Part shown: positions 1-42,639 of the stretch, piece after piece | Numbering within the stretch: the first letter of the stretch is position 1 | How the letters are laid out: every line of letters begins with the position of its first letter | Position numbers and translations under genes: made by a program | The notes under the pieces: generated by a model | The model's database searches: none | Told to the model about the DNA's origin: nothing | What the model saw: only the letters and a program-made list of their open reading frames with translations | Origin: Labedella gwakjiensis | Lineage (GTDB): Bacteria; Actinomycetota; Actinomycetes; Actinomycetales; Microbacteriaceae | Reading direction: 5' to 3' | Assembly: GCF_003014675.1 (NCBI RefSeq) | Contig: NZ_PYAU01000001.1 | Span: forward strand, 2,852,001 to 2,916,000 | Length of the DNA: 64,000 nucleotides

Positions 1-92
1 AATCACTGACGTTCGACCGGCTCCCGAGACCTCGTCGCGCAAGCGACAGGAAACACAGCAGCAGTACAACGAAGAAGAGGGATATCCAACAT

Positions 93-968
93 ATGATGCG
101 CAAAAAGCTCTCCCTGGTCGCCATCGCGGCCGCCGGTGCGCTCGCGCTCGCCGCCTGTGGCGGATCGAGCAGCGACACCGACAACCCCGGCGCCGCCGTC
201 GAGGAGTCGCCCGAGTTCGAGGCCGGCACCACGATGGCCGAGCTCGCTGAGGCCGGCTCCATCACCATCGGAACGAAGTTCGACCAGCCGCTCTTCGGTC
301 TCGTCGGACCGGACGGTACGCCCGTCGGCTTCGACGTCGAGATCGGCAAGATCATCGCCGCGAAGCTCGGCATCTCCGCCGAGAACATCGAGTGGGAGGA
401 GACGGTCTCCGCGAACCGCGAGCCGTTCATCGAGAACGGTCAGGTCGACATCGTCATCGCGACGTACACGATCAACGACGAGCGCAAGGAAGTCATCTCC
501 TTCGCCGGTCCGTACTACGAGGCCGGTCAGTCGATCCTGACGCTCGCGGACAACGAGGACATCGAGAGCGAGGACGACCTCGTCGGCCAGCCGGTGTGCT
601 CGGTCTCCGGTTCCACGCCGGCCGACAACCTCACCGAGCTCGGTGCCGAGGTCGTGCTGACCGACACCTACGCCAACTGCCTCGAGCCGCTGCGCACGGG
701 TCAGGTCGTCGCCGTGAGCACCGACAACGTCATCCTGGCCGGCCTCGCCGCCCAGAACGAGGGCGAGTTCAAGGTCGTCGGCGAGCCCTTCACGCAGGAG
801 CCCTACGGCATCGGCCTCGCGAAGGACGACGTCGAGTTCCGCGACTGGATCAACGACGTGATCGAGGAGTCCTACGAGGACGGCTCGTACGAGCAGGCCT
901 GGGAGGACACCGCCGGAACGGTGCTTCCGTACGTCGACCCGCCCGCGGTCGACCGTTACGAGGACTGA
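93..968 (+). CDS. ABC transporter substrate-binding lipoprotein, polar amino acid type
   Basis: Extracellular binding protein of a family-3 (glutamate/glutamine-type) amino-acid ABC importer; it would capture the substrate outside the membrane and hand it to the two permeases encoded downstream. The first 21 residues are a lipoprotein signal peptide (MRKK, hydrophobic stretch, lipobox LAAC), so Cys22 is the lipidated residue. The mature part has the family patterns FDQPLFG and GFDVEIGK in the first lobe. Met codons at 93 and 96 are both possible starts; a purine-rich GAAGAAGAGG (71-80) is the ribosome site. The length (291 aa) is usual for the family. No ATP-binding subunit follows, so its gene may lie left of the window. 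The exact substrate is not determined by the sequence. Confidence 0.9.
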   Translation: MMRKKLSLVAIAAAGALALAACGGSSSDTDNPGAAVEESPEFEAGTTMAELAEAGSITIGTKFDQPLFGLVGPDGTPVGFDVEIGKIIAAKLGISAENIEWEETVSANREPFIENGQVDIVIATYTINDERKEVISFAGPYYEAGQSILTLADNEDIESEDDLVGQPVCSVSGSTPADNLTELGAEVVLTDTYANCLEPLRTGQVVAVSTDNVILAGLAAQNEGEFKVVGEPFTQEPYGIGLAKDDVEFRDWINDVIEESYEDGSYEQAWEDTAGTVLPYVDPPAVDRYED

Positions 969-977
969 CCCGATGAC

Positions 978-1015
978 GAGCGTTCCCCCGCGGCATGGTC
1001 CGCGGGGGAACGCTC
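978..1015 (+). terminator. Intra-operon stem-loop after the binding-protein gene
   Basis: A perfect 16-bp inverted repeat (978-993 with 1000-1015, 6-base loop) sits between the binding-protein gene and the first permease gene. In ABC importer operons such stems commonly act as partial terminators or mRNA-stabilising ends that give more binding protein than permease; that role is inferred here. There is no T-run after it. Confidence 0.6.
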
Positions 1016-1049
1016 GCTCCCTTCCGCTTCACCCAGAGAGGCCTCGCCC

Positions 1050-1693
1050 GTGCAGGTGATCTTCGACAACCTCCCCGTCTACTGGACGGGGTTCCTCGTG
1101 ACGCTCCAACTGACCGTCGTCGGCGGTGTCTTCGCGACCCTGATCGGGATCGTCATCGCGATCTTCCGGATCTCACCGGTCGCGTCCCTCCGGGGCTTCG
1201 CGACCGTCTACACCGAGATCGTCCGCTGCACCCCTCTCACACTCGTGTTCTTCTTCTGCGCCATCGTGCTTCCGATCCTGGGAGTCGACTTCCCGTACCT
1301 CGCCTTCGCCTTCATCGCGCTGAGCGTCTACACCTCGCCGTTCGTCGCCGAAGCGCTTCGCTCGGGCATCAACGGGGTGGCCCTCGGACAGGCAGAAGCT
1401 GCGCGGAGCCTCGGCCTCGGATTCGGACAGACCGTCGGCTTCGTGGTCTTCCCACAGGCGATCCGCATGACCATTCCGCCCCTCATCAACGTCTTCATCG
1501 CACTCACGAAGAACACGTCCATCGCGGGGGCCTTCTACGTCACCGAACTCTTCGGAGTGGGACGCGCGCTCGTGAACGCCAACGGCAACGCGGTCATCGC
1601 GATCCTGCTCGGCGTCGCATTCTTCTACCTCGTCATCACGGTGCCGCTCGGCCAGATCGCCGCGCACCTCGAGCGAAAGGTCGCGGTGACCCG

Positions 1694-1697
<4 letters not shown>
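1050..1697 (+). CDS. Amino acid ABC transporter permease (first subunit)
   Basis: Inner-membrane permease of the His/Glu/Gln/Arg class, 215 aa. It opens with the family pattern NLPVYWTGFLVTLQ and has about five hydrophobic segments. The cytoplasmic EAA loop that contacts the ATPase reads EAARSLGLGFGQT in the middle of the protein. A GTG start at 1050 fits the family N-terminus. Its stop overlaps the next permease start by four bases (ATGA), so the two are translationally coupled and probably form the heterodimeric channel for the upstream binding protein. Confidence 0.9.
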
Positions 1698-3701
<2,004 letters not shown>

Positions 3702-15592: not shown

Positions 15593-16939
15593 TCAGGGGA
15601 CCGTGGCCGTCTCCGGTGCGACCAGATCGGCCGACTGCGCAGTCGTCGCCCGCCCGACCCCTGTGACGAGTCCGAGCTTGCCGGCAACGATGTAGAGGAC
15701 CATCGAGAGCACGAGCGACAGGACGGCCGGGATGCCCCAGGTCACGAGATAGCCCGTGACCGCCGAGACCACCCAGATGACGATCGTCGCGGGGACGATG
15801 CGCGGGGCCGTCTCGGGGAGGCGGCCGACGGCGCGGGAGCTGTCGAGCTCCCCGCGCCAGCGCTTCACGACGAAGTACTCGGCGACGATGATGCCGGCGA
15901 TGGGTGGGAAGGCGACACCGAGGATGGTGAGGAAGCCCGTGAACTGCGACAGGATTCCCGCCGCCGCGAGGATCGAGCCGACGACGCCGAGAACGATCGT
16001 CGTGGTGACGCGGTTGAGCTTCTTGGCGAAGGCGGTCGAGATGAAGTTCACGAGGCCGAGTGTCGACGAGTAGAGGTTCCAGTCGTTGATCTTGAGTGTG
16101 CCCGTGATGACGATGATGAGACCGACGAACCCGATCGAGGACGTGACGATCGCGACGATGTCGCCAGACGCTGCCGCGTGAGCGAGCAGCACGCCGGCGA
16201 GTCCGATGACGAACTCGCCGAGTGTCACTCCCACGACGGTCTGCTTGACGACGTCGGCCTTCGACCGGTTGAAGCGGGTCATGTCGGCGGTGATGATCGC
16301 GCCGACGATGAGACCGCCCGCGACGATGCCGGTGCCGGCCCACACGCTCATGGCCGGACCGGGGGCCGGTCCCGTGAGGAGCTCACCGAGGTCGTGGCGG
16401 GAGAGTTCGCTGACGACCGACCATCCGACGAGGATGAGGAAGAGGGGAACGGTGACGTTCGCGAGCCACTGCATACCGACGAAGCCGAAGCTGACGATGG
16501 CGGTCACGGCGAGACCGAAGATGAGGCTCCAGGCCCAGATGGGCATGACGCCCGGCATGAGGACGTCGAGGGACTGCGCGGAGATCGCCGACTGGATGCC
16601 GAACCACCCGATGAGGCTGATGCCGATGGCGAGCCCGACGAGACTGGCGCCGATCTCGCCGAATCCGGTCCAACGCGCGAGGAGGGCTGTGTTCAGGCCC
16701 TCTTTCTGACCGATGATGCCGACGATGCACATGATGATCTCGAGGATGATCGAACCGAGGAGCAGCGCGAGCGCGGCGTCGGCGAACGACATGCTGTAGC
16801 CGAGCGTGGCTCCGAGGAGGAACTGGGACAGCGCCGACACCTGACCGAAGCGTTGGACGGCGATGCCGAACCAGGGCTTCTGGGCCGAGGGGTCGACGCG
16901 GCTCAGGGCGAAGTCGTCTGCAGGGGCTGTACGGGCCAT
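15593..16939 (-). CDS. Purine-cytosine permease family transporter (NCS1/CodB type)
   Basis: 448 aa integral membrane protein of the nucleobase:cation symporter-1 family with about twelve hydrophobic segments. The family pattern WFGIAVQRFGQVSALSQFLLG stands at the N-terminus and helix 1 includes GATLGYSMSF. ATG 16939 is chosen for its upstream AAGGAC ribosome site; the longer frame would add about 40 residues without family similarity. It is the first gene of the hydantoinase-DUF917-PucR operon and probably imports the cyclic amide or nucleobase-like compound degraded by the rest. Two palindromes lie 80-130 bases upstream. Confidence 0.86.
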   Translation of the reverse strand: MARTAPADDFALSRVDPSAQKPWFGIAVQRFGQVSALSQFLLGATLGYSMSFADAALALLLGSIILEIIMCIVGIIGQKEGLNTALLARWTGFGEIGASLVGLAIGISLIGWFGIQSAISAQSLDVLMPGVMPIWAWSLIFGLAVTAIVSFGFVGMQWLANVTVPLFLILVGWSVVSELSRHDLGELLTGPAPGPAMSVWAGTGIVAGGLIVGAIITADMTRFNRSKADVVKQTVVGVTLGEFVIGLAGVLLAHAAASGDIVAIVTSSIGFVGLIIVITGTLKINDWNLYSSTLGLVNFISTAFAKKLNRVTTTIVLGVVGSILAAAGILSQFTGFLTILGVAFPPIAGIIVAEYFVVKRWRGELDSSRAVGRLPETAPRIVPATIVIWVVSAVTGYLVTWGIPAVLSLVLSMVLYIVAGKLGLVTGVGRATTAQSADLVAPETATVP

Positions 16940-34293: not shown

Positions 34294-34367
<74 letters not shown>

Positions 34368-35212
34368 CAATGAGGCTCGATGAGACTGGTGTCTTATCGG
34401 GCCTTCGTCGTCTGCGAGTTGTGGTCGCCGGCCGGTCCACGCGAAGCGGCAGGGGAGGATAGCGCGGCATGCTATCGCCGCTCTCGATGCCTTGAGCCTC
34501 CCTGACGAGAGAGTCCCATGGTTCTGCTGCCGCTGCCTAGTGCTTCATCCCCGGCGTGCAGTCTTGTAAGAATGCGTGGTCATCCAGCGATGCCACCCGC
34601 GGGAACACGCGGGGCAACCGCGGTCGCGACAGCAAGGCCGAGCTGGCCATACGCCGTCTCGGGTGACGAGTTGCGCTACCAAGTGAAGGCTCGCCCGGAG
34701 CCGGACCGCCGCAGGCCAGCGGATCCGCTCTGCATACGAGCGCAAGCCGCCGTACACTTCGACGGCTACTACCGGCACGGCTACCCCGAGCACCTCACCA
34801 TGCCGCCACCAATCTGAACGCCTGGAGCACGAGTTCCGAAGGAGAAGCGCACAGGCCCGGGAGACTGCGACGCTTCTCCGGGAGGCGGCTGGCTCGCATT
34901 GTGTTTCTGGGCGTCCGGCGACGGTTGCGGCGAGCATGGTGGAGCAATTGCAGGATCGTTACGCATTGGTCACCGTATGATCCCATCCCAGTCGTCGGTT
35001 GTCGGCTGGAGCCGGGCTTACGTAGGGGACGCGACGTCACGAGAGCAGGCTCGACGGCGCGTGGCAGCCGTAATGTCGGCCCGTCCTTCTATTGTTGTAA
35101 TGAACTCACGCTGACTAGCGTGAAGCATGCCTCGCTGCTTTGCGGTTTGAAGCCACTTGGCTGGACGCAGAACCAAGTTGGACCTAGGAATCTGAAGGAG
35201 AAAACCCCCATA
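34368..35212. other. Long gene-poor stretch at the left edge of the island
   Basis: About 845 bases with no convincing gene. Short overlapping frames on both strands (for example 34518-34817 and 34545-34937) lack recognisable domains and ribosome sites. Base composition is visibly less GC-rich than the flanks. It ends with an inverted repeat and a GAAGGAG ribosome site ahead of the methyltransferase. It could hold decayed integrase sequence, but none is recognised. Confidence 0.5.
35106..35123 (+). promoter_or_regulatory. Inverted repeat upstream of the methyltransferase gene
   Basis: TCACGCT (35106-35112) and AGCGTGA (35117-35123) form a perfect 7-bp repeat with a 4-base spacer, about 90 bases before the methyltransferase start. 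TGTAAT (35095-35100) just before it could be a -10 box. Could be an operator for delayed restriction expression; no C-protein gene is seen. Confidence 0.3.
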
Positions 35213-36619
35213 ATGGCAGGTCAGCCTCTCAATTTCCGATTCGTCGACCTATTCGCGGGACTTGGTGGTTTTCATGTAGCCCTCCGGGGGCTCGGCGGCG
35301 AGGGCGTATTCGCCGCGGAATGGGAGTCGGGGCTAAACGCTCTCTACGCGACTAACTTCGGTATTTCACCGTGGTCCGACGTGAACGAACTCGACACGGA
35401 CGGGGCGATCGCCGAGCACGTTCCCGACCATGAAGTTCTCACCGCGGGTTTCCCCTGCCAGCCGTTCTCCAAGTCAGGTAAGCAGCAGGGGTTCGAGCAC
35501 ACTCTGCAAGGTCATTTGTTCTTCAAGGTGCACGACATTCTGCGCGTGAAGAGGCCCGGCCGTTTCATTCTGGAGAACGTCCCGAACATCCTCAGCCACG
35601 ACGGCGGTGAGACCAAGGCGACCATCATCAAGATGCTCGATGATCTTGGTTACGAAGTGGACATCCGGCGGTTGTCGCCACATCAGTTCGGCATCCCGCA
35701 GGTGCGCGAGCGGGCTTACTTTGTCGGCGCGCTCATCTCCGAGGGCGGGCTAGTCGGGTTCAAATGGCCAGAGGAGAGCAAGGAAGAGACCACCATCGCC
35801 ACCGCCCTTGACCCCGAGGCGCCACCCGTTCGCGACGTGCCCCAGAGGACGGAAGACGCGATCGACATGTGGCGGGACTTCCTGCGTCGTGCGCCGAAGG
35901 ACATCAAGCTCCCATCCTTTCCAATCTGGTCGATGGAGTTCCGCGCGAGTTACCCCTACGAGGGATTGACTCCGCCGAGGGCGTGGTCCGAGCGCCGCCC
36001 GGAGAAGCTCGATGAGTTCACGGGATCATTCGGCTCGCCGCTCGACGGACTGAGTATTGCTGACCAGAAGCTGCTGATTCCAAGCCACTCCCGGCGTGAC
36101 GGGGACATTGAGTTCCCTGCTTGGAAGCGTGCCTTCATTCGGCAGAACCGCGCACTCTACTGCGACAACCGCAAATGGATCGACCCGTGGCTTGATGAGT
36201 GGCGGCCATGGGAGTTCCCGTCCAGCTTCCAGAAGTTTGAATGGAACGCGCAGGGTGGCGTGCGGGACATCGACGAGTACGTCATACAGGTCCGAGCCTC
36301 GGGGGTCCGTGTGAAGCGGCCCACGACCGCGCCGGCTTTGATCGCGATGACACAGACACAAGTGCCGATTCTAGGAGCGAGGATCTCCGGCACCGGCGCC
36401 CGGCGCTACATGACCCCCGCAGAGTGCGCGAAGTTGCAGAGCCTCGGTGGGATCACCCTGCCTGCGCGTGACGTAGCTGCGTACAAGGCGCTCGGTAACG
36501 CCGTCAATGCGAAGGTAGTCCGCAAAATCGCAGAGCCCCTCCTCGAGGCGTTGGCCTCAAGTGAGACGCCGTCTGACATCACAAGTCCAAGAATCATGGA
36601 AGCTCGGGGTGCTGCCTAG
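35213..36619 (+). CDS. DNA (cytosine-5) methyltransferase
   Basis: Transfers methyl from SAM to C5 of cytosine in a specific DNA sequence; probably protects the host from the nuclease encoded downstream. The 468-aa protein has motif I DLFAGLGGF, motif IV with the catalytic Cys82 (GFPCQPFSKSGKQQG), motif VI ENVPN (about 121-125), motif VIII QFGIPQVRERAYFVG, a large variable target-recognition region, and motif X (YKALGNAVN) near the end. ATG 35213 is preceded by GAAGGAG; the open frame further upstream is not typical. First gene of a four-gene locus with less GC-rich codons than the flanks, which suggests horizontal transfer. The recognition sequence is not predictable. Confidence 0.94.
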   Translation: MAGQPLNFRFVDLFAGLGGFHVALRGLGGEGVFAAEWESGLNALYATNFGISPWSDVNELDTDGAIAEHVPDHEVLTAGFPCQPFSKSGKQQGFEHTLQGHLFFKVHDILRVKRPGRFILENVPNILSHDGGETKATIIKMLDDLGYEVDIRRLSPHQFGIPQVRERAYFVGALISEGGLVGFKWPEESKEETTIATALDPEAPPVRDVPQRTEDAIDMWRDFLRRAPKDIKLPSFPIWSMEFRASYPYEGLTPPRAWSERRPEKLDEFTGSFGSPLDGLSIADQKLLIPSHSRRDGDIEFPAWKRAFIRQNRALYCDNRKWIDPWLDEWRPWEFPSSFQKFEWNAQGGVRDIDEYVIQVRASGVRVKRPTTAPALIAMTQTQVPILGARISGTGARRYMTPAECAKLQSLGGITLPARDVAAYKALGNAVNAKVVRKIAEPLLEALASSETPSDITSPRIMEARGAA

Positions 36620-36657
36620 CGGCAGTTCCAGACAACATCGAGAAGAAAGCGCCACTA

Positions 36658-38538
36658 ATGAGTCTTAATGTCGTAGAGGCCGCAGAGGAGAGCCCGCGCC
36701 CGCAGGCGCAGGATCGCATCGCGGAAGCGCTTTCGGAACTGTCGGACGTGACTGACACCCCCGAGGGAGTGCCGGCTTGCGCCAGTTTCTCACCTACCGA
36801 CGTGGACTTCGAATCTGATGCCTGGATATCGCGGCTGACCGACGTGCAAGGCTGGCTGCACTTTGATGACGATCTTTCAGATGCCGATCTCACGGCGTTC
36901 GCCCTCAGCCTCGCAGCGAACCTCAGCTTTGCCCCGGCAGCCCAAGGGATTGAGGAGACCGGCGGGGCCATTCGGTTGACTACCGAGGCCCTAGAGCGCC
37001 TCGCTGCGCGAGCCGAGGCAGCTAGCCGGCTCAAGGACGAGTTCATAGCAGAGCTCAACTCCGACGGTGGTACCCAATCGTCCGCGACGGCTTCGTGGGC
37101 GGATCGCTGGGAAGCTGAAGGGGGTGACGAGGAAGCTATCTCCCCGGAGCCCGTTACGGCTAAGGCTGACGTGTGGCACATCTTTCAGCTGACGAAGAAA
37201 AAGCTGAACCTCACACCTTCGTACCAGCGAGGGGACGTGTGGCGCACGGGGGATCGACAGAAGCTGATCGAGTCAATTCTTCGTGGCATTCCCCTGCCCT
37301 CGATCATCTTGCTTCGGAAAGGCGGCGCTGCCCCCGACGACGTCGTGGACGGCAAGCAGCGCCTGACCGCGATTCTGCGTTATGTGGGCAAGCACCCTGA
37401 AGCGCTAGTGAGGGTGGCTGAGGCCGACAAGGCGAAGCCTGAGGCTGGGTTTCGCGAAAAGTTCGAGAACGACTACCCCAAGTTCCGCTTGGCTTGGAAG
37501 ACGTATATGGGCGAACCGCTCACTGCAAAACTCGAAGATGACTACTACTTCCCGTTCCGGCTGCGCAACGACAAGAACGGTGTCCTAGTCGGTAAAGACC
37601 TAGAGCCTCTACGTGGTAAGTACTACACCCAGATCAAGGGACACACCATCCACGTCGCCGACCAGGAAGTGACGGTCGAGGAACTCTTCGAAGGCGCCCC
37701 TGATTACAAGGTGCCCGTCATCGAATACACGAAGGCGAGTCAGCGGCAGATCCACGAGGTCTTCAACTTGTACAACAAACAAGGCATGCACCTGAACGCC
37801 GAGGAAATTCGCAACGCAGTATTCCACGATGTCGAGCTCACGCGCGCGATCCTCGTTGCGGCTGGAGACGCAAGTAATCGAGCCAACATCGCAGACATCG
37901 CCCCGTCGCTCCTCGACGTTGCCGGGGCGAGCGAACTCGGCAAAACGCTGGCCGACTACGGATTTGGCGAGGCTCGCTACCGCCGAACGAAGGTTCTCGG
38001 ATGGATCATCGCGGTGCTTGTCAATGACTCGGGAGGAAAGCTGCTCCCCTCTACGTCACGCCACACCGACGACCTCCTCAAGCGGGTGCAGGACGACGGC
38101 TCACATGCACTGCGCACCTCCTCTCGTCTCTCCGACCTATTCAGACTCGTAGTTACGGCTGCCAGCCTTCACGCGGCTTATGACGAGCTCTGGCCGGACA
38201 AGTTTCGTGGCGACGGGAAGAGCAGTCGGTGGCAAGATTTGCAGCTAGTCGGGTCGCTTGTTGGCGTCGCGATCGCCGCCGTCGACGCGCCGGAAGATAT
38301 CGAGGAGCGTCTTGAGGCCAACGCCGCGACGATCCGCCAAGCGGCGCTGAACGAGTGGACGCGTCCCGAGAAGACCCAGACCCGCACGCAGTGGGACTTC
38401 ATCGCTCGCATCGCAGCCGGCATTGTCGAGAAGCTCGGGCTCGACATCGAGTCAGCCTCCGAAGCGATCCGAACCAGGTTCGGCTCATCCGGCGTTGAGT
38501 CATTGCTGGCCTCGCGTATACCAACGAAGGGTGCGTGA
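36658..38538 (+). CDS. DUF262 domain protein (GmrSD-N/ParB-like)
   Basis: 626 aa, cytoplasmic. The DUF262 core begins near residue 180 with NLTPSYQRGDVWRTGDRQKL, then the diagnostic DGKQR (231-235; DGQQR in most relatives), and later LYNKQGMHLNAEEIRNAV. DUF262 is the nucleotide-binding N-terminal domain of type IV enzyme GmrS/GmrD. The HNH (DUF1524) nuclease domain that often follows is not visible here, so nuclease activity likely comes from the partner gene. Residues 1-170 are an acidic region of unknown fold. Starts 38 bases after the methyltransferase stop. Confidence 0.85.
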   Translation: MSLNVVEAAEESPRPQAQDRIAEALSELSDVTDTPEGVPACASFSPTDVDFESDAWISRLTDVQGWLHFDDDLSDADLTAFALSLAANLSFAPAAQGIEETGGAIRLTTEALERLAARAEAASRLKDEFIAELNSDGGTQSSATASWADRWEAEGGDEEAISPEPVTAKADVWHIFQLTKKKLNLTPSYQRGDVWRTGDRQKLIESILRGIPLPSIILLRKGGAAPDDVVDGKQRLTAILRYVGKHPEALVRVAEADKAKPEAGFREKFENDYPKFRLAWKTYMGEPLTAKLEDDYYFPFRLRNDKNGVLVGKDLEPLRGKYYTQIKGHTIHVADQEVTVEELFEGAPDYKVPVIEYTKASQRQIHEVFNLYNKQGMHLNAEEIRNAVFHDVELTRAILVAAGDASNRANIADIAPSLLDVAGASELGKTLADYGFGEARYRRTKVLGWIIAVLVNDSGGKLLPSTSRHTDDLLKRVQDDGSHALRTSSRLSDLFRLVVTAASLHAAYDELWPDKFRGDGKSSRWQDLQLVGSLVGVAIAAVDAPEDIEERLEANAATIRQAALNEWTRPEKTQTRTQWDFIARIAAGIVEKLGLDIESASEAIRTRFGSSGVESLLASRIPTKGA

Positions 38539-38547
38539 TCGATCATC

Positions 38548-41346
38548 GTGGAACGGGTGCACTTCGATGCGCCGTCTGACGCAGACGAGACATGGTGGAG
38601 CCGGTACGCTCGCGAACTCGGGCAGATGACCTCGACCGCCCGAGGAGTGCTCCAGACCGATTGCCGCTACATCATCGAGAGAGGGATGCTCGGTGCGGGG
38701 CCGCCGAATGCCGCAACGTGGCCCGAGAGCCGGACACGTACGGGGCTGGTCATGGGCTCAGTGCAGTCAGGCAAGACAGCCTCAATGTTCGGCGTGACCG
38801 CGCTGGCGCTCGACCGAGGCATCGACATCGTGGTGCTCCTCGCGGGGACACGCCTGTCGCTGTGGCGCCAGACCTACGAGCGCATGGTTGAGCAACTCGA
38901 TGCGGGGGAGGACGGGGTCGCGAAAGTGCGGCGGCGGCTGCTCTGTCCAACTCCGGACGTCGTGCTGTCTGGGGTGCCAACGACATTGGACAGCACGTAT
39001 CGGCTCCCTTCCGCGCAGGTGAGACGCAAGCTGTCGCAGAGACAGCCGCTGATCGTCGTTGCAATGAAGCAGACCGATCATCTCTACGCGCTCGGGCGCG
39101 AATTGCGTCAGAGCGTGTTTAGCGAGGTCGCGCGACTCGATCGTGCCGTGCACATGCTCGTCCTTGATGATGAAGCGGATGACGGCTCTGTGCTCGATGC
39201 CGTCGTCGAGCAATCTCGGGGCCCCCTTTCGCCTACCCTCAAACAAGTTCCCCGCGCGATCGCCGATCTATGGGAACCGCGATCGAGTGGAGCGCCGGAC
39301 AACCTTTTCGCTACCTATGTCGGGTACACCGCAACCCCGCAGGCGAACCTGCTGCAAGAGGACCACAATCCACTCGCTCCACGGGACTTCGTGATCTCGC
39401 TTCGGACGCCGCTCGATGTCGGCCAGCCCGCAGACCCCAGCAACCTGGATGCCCTGCGCTCGTCGACATTCCCAGAACCGAACGGAATTGACAGCTACTA
39501 CACGGGCGGCGAGGTCTACTACGACCGCGGCACTGGCGCCGGCCTCTGCCGCGAGCTATCGGGACAAGCCGACAACGATCTCGCAGATTCCATCCGCGCC
39601 TTCCTTGTTGCCGGTGCGATCAGGTTGCACTGGGCCTCGGCAACTGACCCCACCGTGATGGGACCACGCTCGATCAGGGGCGTGGACTTCCTCCTGCGAG
39701 ACGATGTGAGAGCGGCTTCGCCGCCCACCCACTCGATGCTGCTCCACCCCTCCGCAGACATTGGCGCTCACTTCGCAGCCGCGGAGGACGTACTCGTTTG
39801 GGCTGGCGTGCCAGACCGCTCCACGGCACGCAACCTGATCGAATCTGGCAATGCGCTCCTCCCGCACAGCCTCGTCGCGAAGATGCGCGGTGAGGAGCCC
39901 CTCTGGGAGGCATGGATCGACCACTACCGGTCATCATCAAGCGCGATCGCTACCGAGTTCAACGTGATGAACCCTCGACCCATCCCCGACTGGCCGACCG
40001 TGCTCCACATCCTGGAGACCGAGGTCATTCCGGGCACGCGCGTGTCCGTAGTGAACAGCGACCCCGGCGCGGAAGACCGGCCCGAGTACAAGCCGGTCTT
40101 CGACGAGACCACTCGGCGTTGGCGCGCGGCCACGGACCTCTCGACGATCTTCGTCTCCGGCAATGTAATGGCGCGCGGGCTAACACTGGAGGGGATGACG
40201 ACGGCACTCTTCCGACGCAACTCGGCTAACCCTGTGGCCGACACCCAGATGCAGATGCAGCGATGGTTCGGCTACCGCGGAGAATACATCGAGCTCTGCC
40301 GCATGTTCGCCACCCGACAGCAGATCGACTTGTTCGGCGCCTATCACGATGTCGACGAGGCGCTCCGTGAAGGCATCGCGGCGAAGATGGCTGGCGCCGC
40401 GCCTTCTCCGGCGGTCCTGCATGGCATGGGTTTTCTGGCCACCGGAAAGATCGCCAGTATCGGCCGCGTGCCACTGTGTCCGAGCGCAAAACCGTTCGTC
40501 ACGATCATCAACGACGGACAGCAGCCCGACCCGAATGCTCAGCTTGTCGCTGAGGTTTTCTCCGGCCCCTCCTCCGACGTGACGGTGGGGCGCACCGTGC
40601 GCGGACGTGCGCTCGACCGCACACTGTCGTTGTCAGAGGCTGCCGACCTGCTCGGCATTCTCTCGTTTGACTCGTATGCCCCTGGCGACGAAAGCCGCCT
40701 GGCAGAGCTGTGGCAGCAAGTCCAGGCCCGCGTGGACGCAACCCTGCCGCTTCCCGCGGGAACACAGTTCTATCAAGCCCCAAGCCCCGTCGACGGGACA
40801 CCCTCGGAGCCCCGCTTCGAGTGCCCGTATGCTATCGCCGCATACCTCCGCTTGTGGGAAGCGTGCCTCACCCGTGCCGTTAGAGGCCTTTTCGTCACGG
40901 GAGTCCCGTCCGGCCGATGGGCGATGGCCGACCTGCGCGCCAAGGTGCTGCATCAGCCCCGATTCTCCGTCGGTATCCGATACGGCGACGGAGACAGGAT
41001 CACCGGCGGACCCCTCGCCGGTCTCGGCTTTGATATCCGGGCCACCCAGAAAGGCCTGAACGCTCAGGGGAACCTTGACACGACCTGGGGCACGAATGAC
41101 CCGAACGCGGGCCCCCTCGACTACCGCGGCGACGAGTTCTTCGACTACTACCATCGCGGCGAAGCCCTCCCTGCCACGGCTGGGACGACCTCCTGGCGCC
41201 CGCAAGGGGCGCACGGGCAGATCCTCTTCTACATCAACAAACGGCCGGGGCAACCGCATCCTGTAGTTGCTGTCGGAGTGTGCATCCCCGCTGGCGGCCC
41301 GGAGCAGTTCGCCGCGACGCGAGCCGGCTCGCTGATCGCAGCGTGA
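38548..41346 (+). CDS. Z1 domain superfamily-2 ATPase/helicase-like protein
   Basis: 932 aa. Walker A GSVQSGKT (70-77), Walker B-like LVLDDEAD (206-211), a TATPQA motif III at 261-266, and a late arginine-finger region QMQMQRWFGYRGEYIEL are those of the Z1-associated SF2 motor proteins described by Iyer and Aravind in restriction-modification operons with MutL-like ATPases. It should move on or remodel DNA with ATP hydrolysis. GTG 38548 is nine bases after the DUF262 stop, so it is co-transcribed. In the classical set a MORC/MutL-type ATPase is present; here that position is held by the DUF262 protein. Confidence 0.87.
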   Translation: MERVHFDAPSDADETWWSRYARELGQMTSTARGVLQTDCRYIIERGMLGAGPPNAATWPESRTRTGLVMGSVQSGKTASMFGVTALALDRGIDIVVLLAGTRLSLWRQTYERMVEQLDAGEDGVAKVRRRLLCPTPDVVLSGVPTTLDSTYRLPSAQVRRKLSQRQPLIVVAMKQTDHLYALGRELRQSVFSEVARLDRAVHMLVLDDEADDGSVLDAVVEQSRGPLSPTLKQVPRAIADLWEPRSSGAPDNLFATYVGYTATPQANLLQEDHNPLAPRDFVISLRTPLDVGQPADPSNLDALRSSTFPEPNGIDSYYTGGEVYYDRGTGAGLCRELSGQADNDLADSIRAFLVAGAIRLHWASATDPTVMGPRSIRGVDFLLRDDVRAASPPTHSMLLHPSADIGAHFAAAEDVLVWAGVPDRSTARNLIESGNALLPHSLVAKMRGEEPLWEAWIDHYRSSSSAIATEFNVMNPRPIPDWPTVLHILETEVIPGTRVSVVNSDPGAEDRPEYKPVFDETTRRWRAATDLSTIFVSGNVMARGLTLEGMTTALFRRNSANPVADTQMQMQRWFGYRGEYIELCRMFATRQQIDLFGAYHDVDEALREGIAAKMAGAAPSPAVLHGMGFLATGKIASIGRVPLCPSAKPFVTIINDGQQPDPNAQLVAEVFSGPSSDVTVGRTVRGRALDRTLSLSEAADLLGILSFDSYAPGDESRLAELWQQVQARVDATLPLPAGTQFYQAPSPVDGTPSEPRFECPYAIAAYLRLWEACLTRAVRGLFVTGVPSGRWAMADLRAKVLHQPRFSVGIRYGDGDRITGGPLAGLGFDIRATQKGLNAQGNLDTTWGTNDPNAGPLDYRGDEFFDYYHRGEALPATAGTTSWRPQGAHGQILFYINKRPGQPHPVVAVGVCIPAGGPEQFAATRAGSLIAA

Positions 41347-41356
41347 GGAAAATCCG

Positions 41357-42412
41357 ATGACCAATTACGAAGACGCTCGGCAGCGGATCGAACGCATTCC
41401 GGTCTCCGCGGAAGCCGGGTCGCGGAACGTCGAATGGATCACTCCCGCCGAAGTCATCGGCGTGGCTCGTGACACCGAGGGCAAGGTGGAACTCCTCCTG
41501 CGTGGGGACGAGCTCGTGCCGGTCTCCAGAACCGTGAAGGATGCATCCGAACATCGACCTATTTACAAGGACGACGGGACGACGTTCGAAGCCACGCGCC
41601 TCGTCTTCCCCGCACTCACACACTTCGATCAGGTAGCGGCGTTCATCTGCGTCGAGCTCCTGCGAAACGGAGCAGATAGCGATCTCCCGCGCGCATTCTC
41701 CCTCACCGAACCGATCATCGAACTCGCCATCAAGAACCTCACGATGTCAAACCAGGCGTTCCTCGGACTTGCAGGCGAGTTGCTCCTCTTGGAGGCACTA
41801 TGCCGCCGAGCCGACGACTCTCGCGTCATAGAGATCATCGCCGGTTGGCGCGGCTGGCAGCGATCCTCACGCGACATCGTCCTTGGCGGCACGGGGATTG
41901 AGGTCAAGACCACGACAGGCAACGCTTCATCACACTTCGTTGAGGGCGTACATCAGGTCGAACGCGACGAGGAAGGCGACGAGCACCGGCTGCTCCTACT
42001 AAGCATCGGTCTCCAGCGAGCCGAGAGCGACGCCAGCAACAGCTTCACAGTCCCCAGCCTCGTCGAGCGCATCACCATGCGTATGGCCGATACCGGAGCA
42101 TCGCCTCAGGTCATCGAGCGTTTCGTCGCCCACGTTGCCGAGTATGGCGCGATCTCGTGGATCGGTTACGACCACACCACGCAAGCAGCCGATCCGACTT
42201 ACTCGATCCCGTTTCTTACGACCTTCTTCCGCGCCTACGACATGGATGACGCCGCCATCGGTGTCCTACGTCGTCACGACGTTGCCGCGTTTCGGCACGT
42301 CGCCGACGATTCGGTGAGATTTCGGGTGAACCTCTCCACCAATGGGCCGATCAGCGCCGGGAACCCCGTCGAAGGGGCAAATCAGGTAGCCCAGATGATA
42401 CTTGGGCTCTGA
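41357..42412 (+). CDS. PD-(D/E)XK motif protein (DUF4420-like), putative restriction nuclease
   Basis: 351 aa, cytoplasmic. The nuclease core is visible as GLAGELLLLEAL (Glu141), SRDIVLGGTGIEVKTTTG (Asp173, then Glu182 and Lys184 of the E-x-K part), the standard PD-(D/E)XK layout. The family (PF14390, formerly DUF4420, from memory) typically stands directly after a Z1 gene, as here (10 bases). It is the likely cutting subunit that attacks DNA lacking the methylation added by the first gene. Whether cleavage is ATP-dependent and needs the DUF262 protein is open. Confidence 0.85.
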   Translation: MTNYEDARQRIERIPVSAEAGSRNVEWITPAEVIGVARDTEGKVELLLRGDELVPVSRTVKDASEHRPIYKDDGTTFEATRLVFPALTHFDQVAAFICVELLRNGADSDLPRAFSLTEPIIELAIKNLTMSNQAFLGLAGELLLLEALCRRADDSRVIEIIAGWRGWQRSSRDIVLGGTGIEVKTTTGNASSHFVEGVHQVERDEEGDEHRLLLLSIGLQRAESDASNSFTVPSLVERITMRMADTGASPQVIERFVAHVAEYGAISWIGYDHTTQAADPTYSIPFLTTFFRAYDMDDAAIGVLRRHDVAAFRHVADDSVRFRVNLSTNGPISAGNPVEGANQVAQMILGL

Positions 42413-42417
42413 CACGC

Positions 42418-42639
42418 ATGCCTGCGACGAGATACCAGCGCCCCTCTATGTGCTCCGAAGGTGCCCCTTCCCGAGTTCTCCTCACCCCCACAGGTGGCCT
42501 TGGTCGCGCCGCTACGGCGTGGGATCTCGGGCTCGCCGAATACCTGGCATTGCCGAGACTGCGGGCCGATGTGCTGGTAGCCGGTGACGAGCGCGTCGCA
42601 TCGGCCGCTTCCGAGATGGTCGAGCTCGATGGCACCTGA
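42418..42639 (+). pseudogene. Possible C-terminal remnant of a PIN-domain (VapC-like) toxin
   Basis: A 73-codon frame ends AEYLALPRLRADVLVAGDER then VASAASEMVELDG, which resembles the last third of PIN-domain RNases (a late acidic residue in the AGDER region). The preceding part has no PIN similarity and no antitoxin gene is nearby, so this looks like a leftover from recombination at the right edge of the island. The resemblance is weak and rests on one short stretch. Confidence 0.35.

What the first reader, a model, noticed from the sequence alone, without database searches (positions are those of the whole stretch)
35213..42412. Dcm-DUF262-Z1-PD-(D/E)XK locus: variant of the MORC/Z1 restriction systems
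Four adjacent same-strand genes (gaps 38, 9, 10 bases) encode a cytosine-5 methyltransferase, a DUF262 protein, a Z1-type SF2 ATPase and a PD-(D/E)XK nuclease. The set described by Iyer, Abhiman and Aravind (MutL/MORC-associated restriction systems) has a MORC-like ATPase with Z1 and nuclease; here a DUF262 protein stands in its place. All catalytic motifs are intact, the codon usage looks foreign and the genes follow a tRNA. The full system is probably a working phage or plasmid defence whose DUF262 part may replace the MORC switch. I know of no description of this exact set.
Basis: partly seen in the sequence, partly recalled or inferred. Interest (0 to 1): 0.82.

Follow-up and report, generated by a model that had tools for sequence, protein, structure and literature searches.

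The report
DUF262-type Z1 restriction-modification operon
A four-gene bacterial operon, probably a DNA-defence system, in which a DUF262 switch protein sits where related systems carry a MORC-type ATPase; the same gene set recurs in bacteria assigned to five phyla, and some MORC-type systems carry a closely similar DNA-marking enzyme, but its activity has not been tested.

Summary
Four intact, adjacent, same-strand genes (gaps 38, 9, 10 bases) encode a C5-cytosine methyltransferase, a DUF262 protein without the usual DUF1524 nuclease, a DEAD-Z1 motor and a DUF4420 PD-(D/E)XK nuclease, on a lower-GC island behind tRNA-Pro. A decayed Vsr gene beside them was missed. The set is not local: among 79 loci found with its Z1 protein (capped list; titles point to five phyla), DUF262 lies directly 5' of Z1 in all 75 loci where it was found, and the nuclease directly 3' in all 77. 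GHKL (MORC-type) genes occur in 2 of 79, outside the operon. These Z1 proteins form one branch (SH-aLRT 100). In an evenly drawn sample, 25 of 36 other Z1 places have a GHKL gene in the cluster and none this DUF262 family. Two GHKL-type operons share the gene order and have methyltransferases 72% identical to DUF262-type ones, while Z1 (27-33%) and nuclease (23-29%) are distant: the switches look interchangeable behind similar marks. I read it as a new variant of Z1 restriction-modification: DUF262 as NTP-driven licensing switch, Z1 as motor, DUF4420 as nuclease. Function is inferred. My searches of the held open-access papers found no description.

The parts
34294..34368 (+). tRNA-Pro (anticodon ggg), likely integration site; its last 43 bases (34326-34368) recur as a lone copy in L003 15685-15727
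   Evidence: ARAGORN; blastn; one copy in own genome; the island also follows tRNA-Pro(ggg) in L004
34553..34976 (+). decayed Vsr (very short patch repair endonuclease) gene: similarity lies in two reading frames and the second stretch runs across an in-frame stop at 34815-34817
   Evidence: tblastn with the 26-member family (best, L003, 1e-22; 16 of 26 members hit at 1e-3); the L003 member is Pfam Vsr 1e-15; sequence
35213..36619 (+). C5-cytosine DNA methyltransferase (468 aa): PCQ 81-83, ENV 121-123, QxRxR 163-167
   Evidence: Pfam PF00145 2.1e-57; TIGR00675; residues
36658..38538 (+). DUF262/GmrSD_N protein (626 aa): helical N-terminal region about 1-157, ParB/Srx-type domain about 165-390 with QR (190-191), DGKQR (231-235), FxxxN (369-373), helical C-terminal region; no DUF1524/HNH found
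   Evidence: PF03235 3.5e-23; AlphaFold2 pLDDT 88; SspE Z 8.3, BrxU Z 8.1; invariants
38548..41346 (+). DEAD-Z1 SF2 motor (932 aa): Walker A 70-77, DDE 207-209, Z1 motif DTQMQMQRWFG 565-575
   Evidence: PF10593 1.6e-26; residues
41357..42412 (+). DUF4420 PD-(D/E)XK nuclease (351 aa): E141, D173, E182-x-K184
   Evidence: PF14390 1.1e-15; AlphaFold2 pLDDT 92.7; invariants

Best explanation
It is an ATP/NTP-dependent restriction-modification system, a DUF262-type branch of the DEAD-Z1 family. The Dcm-type methylase marks the host's target cytosines. A complex of DUF262 protein, Z1 motor and DUF4420 nuclease inspects incoming DNA. At unmarked targets the DUF262 protein (ParB/Srx-fold NTPase) binds or hydrolyses nucleotide and licenses the Z1 motor, which moves on or remodels DNA, and the PD-(D/E)XK protein cuts. 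DUF262 takes the place that a GHKL (MORC/paraMORC) ATPase has in sister systems; its usual nuclease half (DUF1524) is missing, presumably because cutting is done by the separate DUF4420 protein. Shown: gene content, intact motifs, conserved order, co-inheritance of the three effector genes, looser linkage of the methylase, and closely similar methylases behind both switch types. Inferred: complex formation, nucleotide hydrolysis, translocation, cleavage of unmarked DNA, and phage or plasmid defence.
For: Pfam domains and invariant catalytic residues. DUF262-Z1 gap -17 to 89 bases in 73 of 73 loci with both genes whole, Z1-nuclease gap -14 to 168 in 74 of 74; a Dcm-family gene (at least 100 bits, 70% coverage) in 72 of 79. 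Pairwise-identity correlations NUC-Z1 0.96, DUF262-Z1 0.92, DUF262-NUC 0.89, Dcm with the others 0.74-0.81: the effector genes travel together and the methylase is exchanged. GHKL-type L130 and L132 have the same order, and their Dcm nest inside the DUF262-linked Dcm tree: Dcm 72% identical to those of L073 and L080 (middle region 71% and 69%), while against the DUF262-type loci compared (window left out) Z1 is 27-33% and nuclease 23-29%. CglI/NgoAVII: C5 methylase + DEAD-Z1 ATPase + separate nuclease, ATPase on DNA with non-methylated sites (passages of PMC4267653). DUF262 as NTP-dependent sensor that licenses a nuclease: SspE (abstract PMC13251355), GmrSD/BrxU and GrwAB (passages). Purifying selection.
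Against: No activity has been measured. No specificity module was found: the window scan was inconclusive, and closely related effectors (L080 v L059: DUF262 81%, Z1 82%, NUC 73%) show no low-identity block although their Dcm are 52% identical, so either these methylases share a target or the effector does not read the sequence that Dcm reads. Given Z1 and NUC, DUF262 identity has no partial correlation with Dcm identity (-0.02; Z1 0.30, NUC 0.01). The DUF262 enzymes in the passages read mostly sense modified, not unmodified, DNA. L032 has no Dcm hit on its 15-kb contig. Foldseek gave no significant match for either model, and the BrxU match of the DUF262 model has rmsd 13.4. The third GHKL-type operon with this Dcm family (L107) has a distant Dcm that does not nest.
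Confidence: 0.62

Rival explanations
1. Modification-activated (Ssp-like) logic: the Dcm's own 5-methylcytosine is the positive signal that DUF262 senses; sensing drives NTP hydrolysis and directs Z1/nuclease to invading DNA or stops its replication.
For: DUF262 proteins GmrSD, BrxU, SspE and GrwAB are described as modification sensors (passages; abstract), and BrxU acts on 5mC DNA (passages). Effectors stay alike when the Dcm is exchanged, as expected if only the mark, not its sequence, is read.
Against: The sister slot holds GHKL ATPases, for which I recall no known DNA mark sensed, with closely similar Dcm. In CglI, the characterised Z1 relative, ATPase works on non-methylated sites.
Confidence: 0.2
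2. DUF262 is the sequence-recognition subunit itself (like the B3-carrying R subunit of CglI), rather than a regulatory switch in the place of MORC.
For: Its domain is ParB-like, and ParB proteins bind DNA (recalled); Pfam shows no other DNA-recognition domain in the trio. In the CglI type (L133) the slot between Dcm and Z1 holds the PLD-B3 protein.
Against: No DUF262 segment covaries with the Dcm target region clearly beyond other windows (highest 0.24, spread 0.13), and DUF262 stays 81% identical across a Dcm exchange.
Confidence: 0.12
3. A chance or transient neighbourhood, or a decayed island remnant, without joint function.
For: A neighbouring Vsr gene is broken in the window; Z1 is truncated and DUF262 absent in L068, and genes are fragmented in L063 and L081.
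Against: The order is kept in all 75 loci that have DUF262, assigned to five phyla; dN/dS 0.07-0.19; catalytic residues kept.
Confidence: 0.02

Closest known systems
MORC/paraMORC-Z1 restriction systems (Iyer, Abhiman and Aravind 2008, third operon type)
   Same: Z1-type SF2 motor, E-D-ExK nuclease, Dcm methylase and Vsr association (parts 1-2 of the text); the same gene order, GHKL in place of DUF262, in L085, L130, L132
   Different: GHKL-S5 ATPase replaced by a DUF262 protein, a domain not named in that paper's text; separate Z1 lineage
MZA (MzaABCDE, Gao et al. 2020; original paper not read, seen as cited in PMC9523054 and as NCBIfam/PADLOC models)
   Same: Z1 protein and DUF4420 nuclease nearest to MzaC and MzaD
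   Different: far below the equivalog cut-offs; no GHKL and no AIPR in the operon
Putative Z1 + PD-(D/E)XK + cytosine-methylase system of PMC9523054 (section 11 read)
   Same: same three core genes
   Different: text gives MORC/AIPR or three unnamed further genes; DUF262 does not occur in the main text; its figure and supplement were not seen
Corynebacterium diphtheriae BH8 island (PMC5379612, passages)
   Same: Z1 helicase, Dcm-like methylase and DUF4420 in one island
   Different: EcoRII-like endonuclease and three unclassified proteins; DUF262 does not occur in the text
CglI / NgoAVII / BceSIV (C5 methylase, PLD-B3 nuclease, DEAD-Z1 ATPase)
   Same: C5 methylase and DEAD-Z1 motor with a separate nuclease polypeptide
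   Different: PLD-B3 subunit absent; DUF262 and PD-(D/E)XK instead
GmrSD / BrxU / SspE / GrwAB (DUF262 defence proteins), Menshen, Dazbog, PD-T4-2
   Same: DUF262 with QR, DG(Q)QR, FxxxN motifs; SspE and BrxU are the top structural rows
   Different: no DUF1524 nuclease found; partners are a Z1 motor and a DUF4420 nuclease

Membership tests
MORC/paraMORC-Z1 restriction systems | GHKL-S5 (MORC or paraMORC) ATPase in the operon | tested here: not met
   None among the window's four genes; in 79 related loci none in the operon, 2 of 79 nearby on the other strand
MORC/paraMORC-Z1 restriction systems | SF2 helicase with Z1 domain and DThhQXuRhFG-like motif | tested here: met
   PF10593 1.6e-26; window 565-575 DTQMQMQRWFG, two positions off the published pattern
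MORC/paraMORC-Z1 restriction systems | RE-fold protein with E-D-ExK | tested here: met
   DUF4420; E141, D173, E182, K184 in 69 of 69
MORC/paraMORC-Z1 restriction systems | frequent Dcm methylase and Vsr | tested here: met
   Dcm in 72 of 79 loci; a BLAST family holding a Pfam Vsr in 26 of 79, decayed in the window
MZA system | MzaC and MzaD equivalog scores over the curated cut-off | tested here: not met
   118.7 v 1500 and 24.3 v 420 bits
MZA system | MutL/MORC-like protein and AIPR protein in the operon | tested here: not met
   not among the window's four genes; in the ORFs of the 79 loci no AIPR hit and 2 GHKL hits outside the operon
CglI-type restriction-modification | C5 methylase | tested here: met
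CglI-type restriction-modification | DEAD-Z1 ATPase | tested here: met
   Z1 domain and Walker motifs; no PDB chain matched by sequence
CglI-type restriction-modification | PLD nuclease with B3-like DNA-binding domain | tested here: not met
   Pfam finds none in the four proteins; the same scan finds both in the CglI-type locus L133
GmrSD Type IV restriction | DUF262 domain with NTP-pocket motif | tested here: met
   PF03235; DGKQR, invariant D, G, Q, R
GmrSD Type IV restriction | DUF1524 / His-Me nuclease | tested here: not met
   no Pfam match in the window protein or in L040 and L036; conserved polar C-terminal residues do not form an HNH set
GmrSD Type IV restriction | cleaves only modified DNA | not testable with these tools
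   needs biochemistry

The most novel reading that the evidence does not exclude
A distinct, old class of motor-driven restriction in which a ParB/Srx-fold NTPase (DUF262) and the unrelated GHKL (MORC) ATPase are evolutionarily interchangeable licensing switches for DEAD-Z1 motors, combined with freely exchanged methylase cassettes; the effector reads the methylation state rather than the sequence that the methylase reads, so one effector serves methylases of different specificity.
Probability: 0.3. Interest if true: 0.8.

Novelty: new variant of a known kind. Interest (0 to 1): 0.62.

Why it matters
MORC-type ATPases act in bacterial restriction and in eukaryotic chromatin, and the biochemistry of the bacterial ones is called poorly understood in print (passage of PMC8011034). 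Here that ATPase is exchanged for an unrelated NTPase whose logic (recognise, hydrolyse, license a nuclease) is better understood from SspE, behind closely similar methyltransferases and with the same motor and nuclease families. Operon pairs such as L130/L073 and L132/L080 (methylase alike, switch different) and L080/L059 (effector alike, methylase different) are natural swap experiments that make two open questions testable: what the switch subunit does, and which subunit of Z1 systems reads the mark. It also adds an unnamed candidate defence type whose genes the PADLOC-DB 2.0.0 and NCBIfam 20.0 protein models assign only to scattered other systems.

Tried and rejected
Local substitution of MORC in one genome: rejected, because the DUF262-linked Z1 proteins form one branch. 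Search for a specificity module by partial correlation of 40-residue windows with the Dcm target region and by low-identity blocks across a Dcm exchange: inconclusive; the highest window was nuclease 101-140 at 0.33 against a spread of 0.13 over windows, and no permutation test was run. Solved relatives of Z1 by sequence: none found. Foldseek against PDB gave no match at E <= 0.001 for either model; only the VIA second look gave SspE, BrxU and ParB rows for DUF262 and a weak EcoRV row for the nuclease (Z 4.8, rmsd 5.3, 133 aligned). Right attachment repeat: no second copy in the window or in its genome. Empty site in relatives: the flank query gave many short, low-identity matches in 35 of 40 genomes, not pursued. 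Plasmids: one record with near-full Z1, DUF262 and nuclease, Neorhizobium L081, with split Z1 and Dcm frames. Phage records: 5 with distant Z1 matches, none covering 80% of the query.

Limits of the counts. The Pfam Z1 sample is the less biased one; its control search rang only in Corynebacterium glutamicum, host of CglI. In the sample DUF262 was sought with this family's own profile; of the loci without GHKL only chosen neighbours were scanned with Pfam, so a divergent DUF262 there is not excluded. L103 has a GHKL piece on the other strand at its contig end and is not counted as GHKL. Trees are 'quick' trees without bootstrap on subsets: Z1, 33 of the 79 loci plus L081 and the window, with 33 other loci (long branches and odd composition warned for L075, L107, L108, L133 and others); Dcm, 36 loci plus the window, with 17 others. 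L031 (split Z1) and L063 (fragmented) fell out of the four-gene set by the coverage rule. The loci outside Actinomycetota and Pseudomonadota (L061, L066, L075, L077) are metagenome bins.
Full report
WHAT IS THERE. The window lies at 2,852,001-2,916,000 of a 3.84-Mb single-contig genome; the closest loci, L002 and L003, are titled Actinomycetales and Microbacteriaceae. Four same-strand ORFs follow one another: Dcm 35213-36619, DUF262 36658-38538, Z1 38548-41346, nuclease 41357-42412, gaps 38, 9 and 10 bases. Pfam identifies them as DNA_methylase (2.1e-57), GmrSD_N/DUF262 (3.5e-23, residues 177-389 only), Z1 (1.6e-26) and DUF4420 PD-(D/E)XK (1.1e-15). G+C is 60-65% over the island against about 70% around it.

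MORE THAN WAS REPORTED. Between tRNA-Pro(ggg) (34294-34368) and Dcm lies a broken Vsr gene: members of a 26-member Vsr family match at 34553-34976 in two frames, the second running over a stop (16 of 26 members hit at E 1e-3); the L003 member is an intact Pfam Vsr. Window 34429-42534 is 88.6% identical to L003 5835-13988. In L003 a lone copy of the last 43 bases of tRNA-Pro stands at 15685-15727 (no tRNA gene called there), a probable attachment site. In L004 the island also follows a tRNA-Pro(ggg). The window's genome has one copy only. So tRNA-Pro is a likely integration point; the excision machinery was not traced.

IT IS A CONSERVED SYSTEM. By record titles (phylum names recalled) most are Actinomycetota and Pseudomonadota, plus four metagenome bins: Polyangia/Myxococcota (L061, L066), Dehalococcoidia (L075) and Phycisphaera (L077). 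DUF262 lies directly 5' of Z1 in 75 of 79: 73 with both genes whole (gap -17 to 89 bases) plus L031 (split Z1) and L063 (fragmented) by ORF positions. The other four are L012, L058 and L069, cut by the contig end, and L068, with a truncated Z1. The nuclease lies directly 3' in 77 of 79 (74 measured, gap -14 to 168; L031, L063 and L068 by position); L011 and L026 are cut by the contig end. Dcm is found in 72 of 79. Of the 71 of these whose distance was measured, 53 have it 5' on the same strand, 6 5' on the other strand and 12 3'. L047 and L061 have a dissimilar Dcm-like ORF nearby, and L032 none. A Vsr-family gene is within the flank of 26 of 79. Checked catalytic residues are invariant in 69 of 69 four-gene sets, except methylase Q163 (66 of 69). 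dN/dS to L002 and L003 is 0.07-0.19.

NO MORC IN THE OPERON. GHKL profiles built from plasmid MORC-type loci (Pfam HATPase_c_3), as three-seed and iterated versions, find a GHKL ORF in 2 of 79 loci, L033 and L064, both on the other strand and outside the trio (Pfam). The iterated profile finds GHKL in 26 of the 36 sample loci below (some of them its own training rows), so it can see these proteins. The AIPR profile finds none in the 79 loci.

SAMPLE OF Z1 LOCI AT LARGE. To lessen the bias of searching with the window's own protein, I searched Pfam Z1 in 396 evenly drawn genomes of the window's phylum (12 places in 10 genomes, the window's among them) and in 398 genomes of the phylum of L014's genome (26 places, the centre's among them). 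I fetched the surroundings of the other 11 and 25 places. A GHKL gene is in the cluster in 6 of 11 and 19 of 25 (L112 only as a piece; in L102 and L105 a Dcm ORF lies between; L103, with a GHKL piece on the other strand at the contig end, is not counted); this DUF262 family in 0 of 36. One (L133) is a CglI-type Dcm - PLD/B3 - Z1 set. The rest are other types (several with a protein of about 600 aa without Pfam match after the nuclease), cut by contig ends, or without a Z1 ORF of 100 aa (L135). The DUF262 type is thus a minority branch of Z1 systems.

HISTORY. In a 68-row Z1 tree the 35 DUF262-linked proteins are one side of one branch (SH-aLRT 100, stem 2.1 changes per column) against rows with GHKL, PLD-B3 or other partners (quick tree; root not inferred). 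Pairwise identities of Z1, DUF262 and nuclease correlate at 0.89-0.96, with Dcm at 0.74-0.81. The association of DUF262 with this Z1 branch is therefore probably old and single, and the trio is inherited together.

THE METHYLASE IS A SHARED CASSETTE. Two GHKL-type operons, L130 and L132, read Dcm-GHKL-Z1-nuclease in the same tight order, and their Dcm fall inside the DUF262-linked Dcm tree (sets supported at 100 and at 97-98; the exact sister pairs only at 85-89). A third, L107, has the same order but a distant Dcm that does not nest. L130's Dcm is 72% identical to L073's and L132's is 72% identical to L080's, target-recognition region included (71% and 69%), while Z1 (27-33%) and nuclease (23-29%) are far apart in the DUF262-type loci compared. 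Conversely L080 and L059 share effectors (DUF262 81%, Z1 82%, nuclease 73%) but have Dcm 52% identical. So similar methylases stand beside either switch type, and alike effectors beside different methylases. That is what one expects of restriction-modification modules that answer to the same kind of mark, and it is the best argument that DUF262 and GHKL ATPases are functional alternatives. It does not show which subunit reads the mark: the scan for a specificity module was inconclusive.

STRUCTURES. The DUF262 protein is predicted at pLDDT 88, the nuclease at 92.7. For DUF262 the VIA second look gives SspE (Z 8.3, rmsd 4.1, 174 aligned), BrxU (Z 8.1, rmsd 13.4, 286 aligned), a chain of the DndBCDE-DndI entry (Z 5.8) and ParB proteins (about 5.5); Foldseek itself gave nothing significant, so the fold assignment rests mainly on the Pfam match. 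The motifs QR, DGQQR and FxxxN, named for this family in PMC12137116 (passage), are present as QR 190-191, DGKQR 231-235 and FxxxN 369-373, invariant at Q190, R191, D231, G232, Q234, R235, F369 and N373. No DUF1524 is found. The nuclease has invariant E141, D173, E182 and K184; its best structural row, EcoRV, is weak (Z 4.8).

MECHANISM. Read with CglI (C5 methylase, DEAD-Z1 ATPase active on DNA with non-methylated sites, separate nuclease; passages of PMC4267653) and SspE (recognise, hydrolyse, activate nuclease; abstract of PMC13251355), the most likely scheme is methylase protection plus a DUF262-Z1-nuclease restriction complex in which DUF262 is the nucleotide-driven licensing switch. Shown: gene content, motifs, conservation, cassette exchange. 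Inferred: complex, hydrolysis, movement, cleavage, defence. The main rival is that DUF262 senses the Dcm's own mark (Ssp-like).

WHAT IS KNOWN. Iyer et al. 2008 (PMC2292703; parts 1 and 2 of 4 read) describe MORC and paraMORC operons with the Z1-type helicase, RE-fold protein, Dcm and Vsr; looking for replacements of MORC they report other GHKL families; DUF262 and ParB do not occur in the text. PMC9523054 (section 11 read) predicts a Z1 + PD-(D/E)XK + cytosine-methylase core with MORC/AIPR or three unnamed genes; figure and supplement not seen. PMC5379612 (passages) notes a Corynebacterium island with Z1, Dcm, DUF4420 and an EcoRII-like enzyme. PMC10952713 (passages) lists DUF262 in GmrSD, BrxU, SspE, Menshen, Dazbog and PD-T4-2. 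PMC4619093 (passages) reports type I RM, helicase and other domains around GmrSD; Z1 is not in the passages shown, and its full list (a supplement) was not seen. Searches for papers holding two of DUF262, DUF4420, MzaC, MZA system, Z1 domain-containing, DEAD-Z1 (none) or of Z1 domain, DUF262 and their Pfam numbers (seven, none pairing Z1 with DUF262 by the listed counts) found no description of this set in the held open-access library. Subscription papers, REBASE and DefenseFinder were not searched.

VERDICT.

Noticed in passing
window 34553-34976: Decayed Vsr gene at the 5' end of the island; an intact Vsr stands at the same place in L003.
   Followed up: yes
L003 15685-15727: Lone 43-base copy of the tRNA-Pro 3' end about 1.7 kb beyond the island homology: probable attachment site; a relaxase-like ORF lies at 3-3494 of the same locus (named from its sequence by recall, not scanned).
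   Followed up: partly
window v L003, four genes: dS is about twice as high for Dcm and DUF262 (0.43, 0.50) as for Z1 and nuclease (0.21, 0.21), which suggests recombination within the operon.
   Followed up: no
L126 9472-11310, L127 3405-5255, L101 9472-11457, L103 7791-9584: Another Z1 variant: Z1-nuclease followed by a protein of about 600-660 aa without Pfam match, with a Dcm in the stretch; perhaps the 'type I' of PMC9523054 (guess).
   Followed up: partly
L040 7624-8070 and similar (L036, L041, L045, L050): In one branch the DUF262 ORF has an N-terminal extension of roughly 110-160 aa; no Pfam match in the L040 extension.
   Followed up: partly
L136 4226-6094 and 6294-8135: A Z1-containing ORF beside a HerA-type ATPase (Pfam) in the genome that also holds the DUF262-type L053.
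   Followed up: no
L081 2742-8687 (Neorhizobium conjugative plasmid NZ_CP147997.1): Plasmid-borne DUF262-type operon whose Dcm and Z1 frames are each split in two.
   Followed up: no
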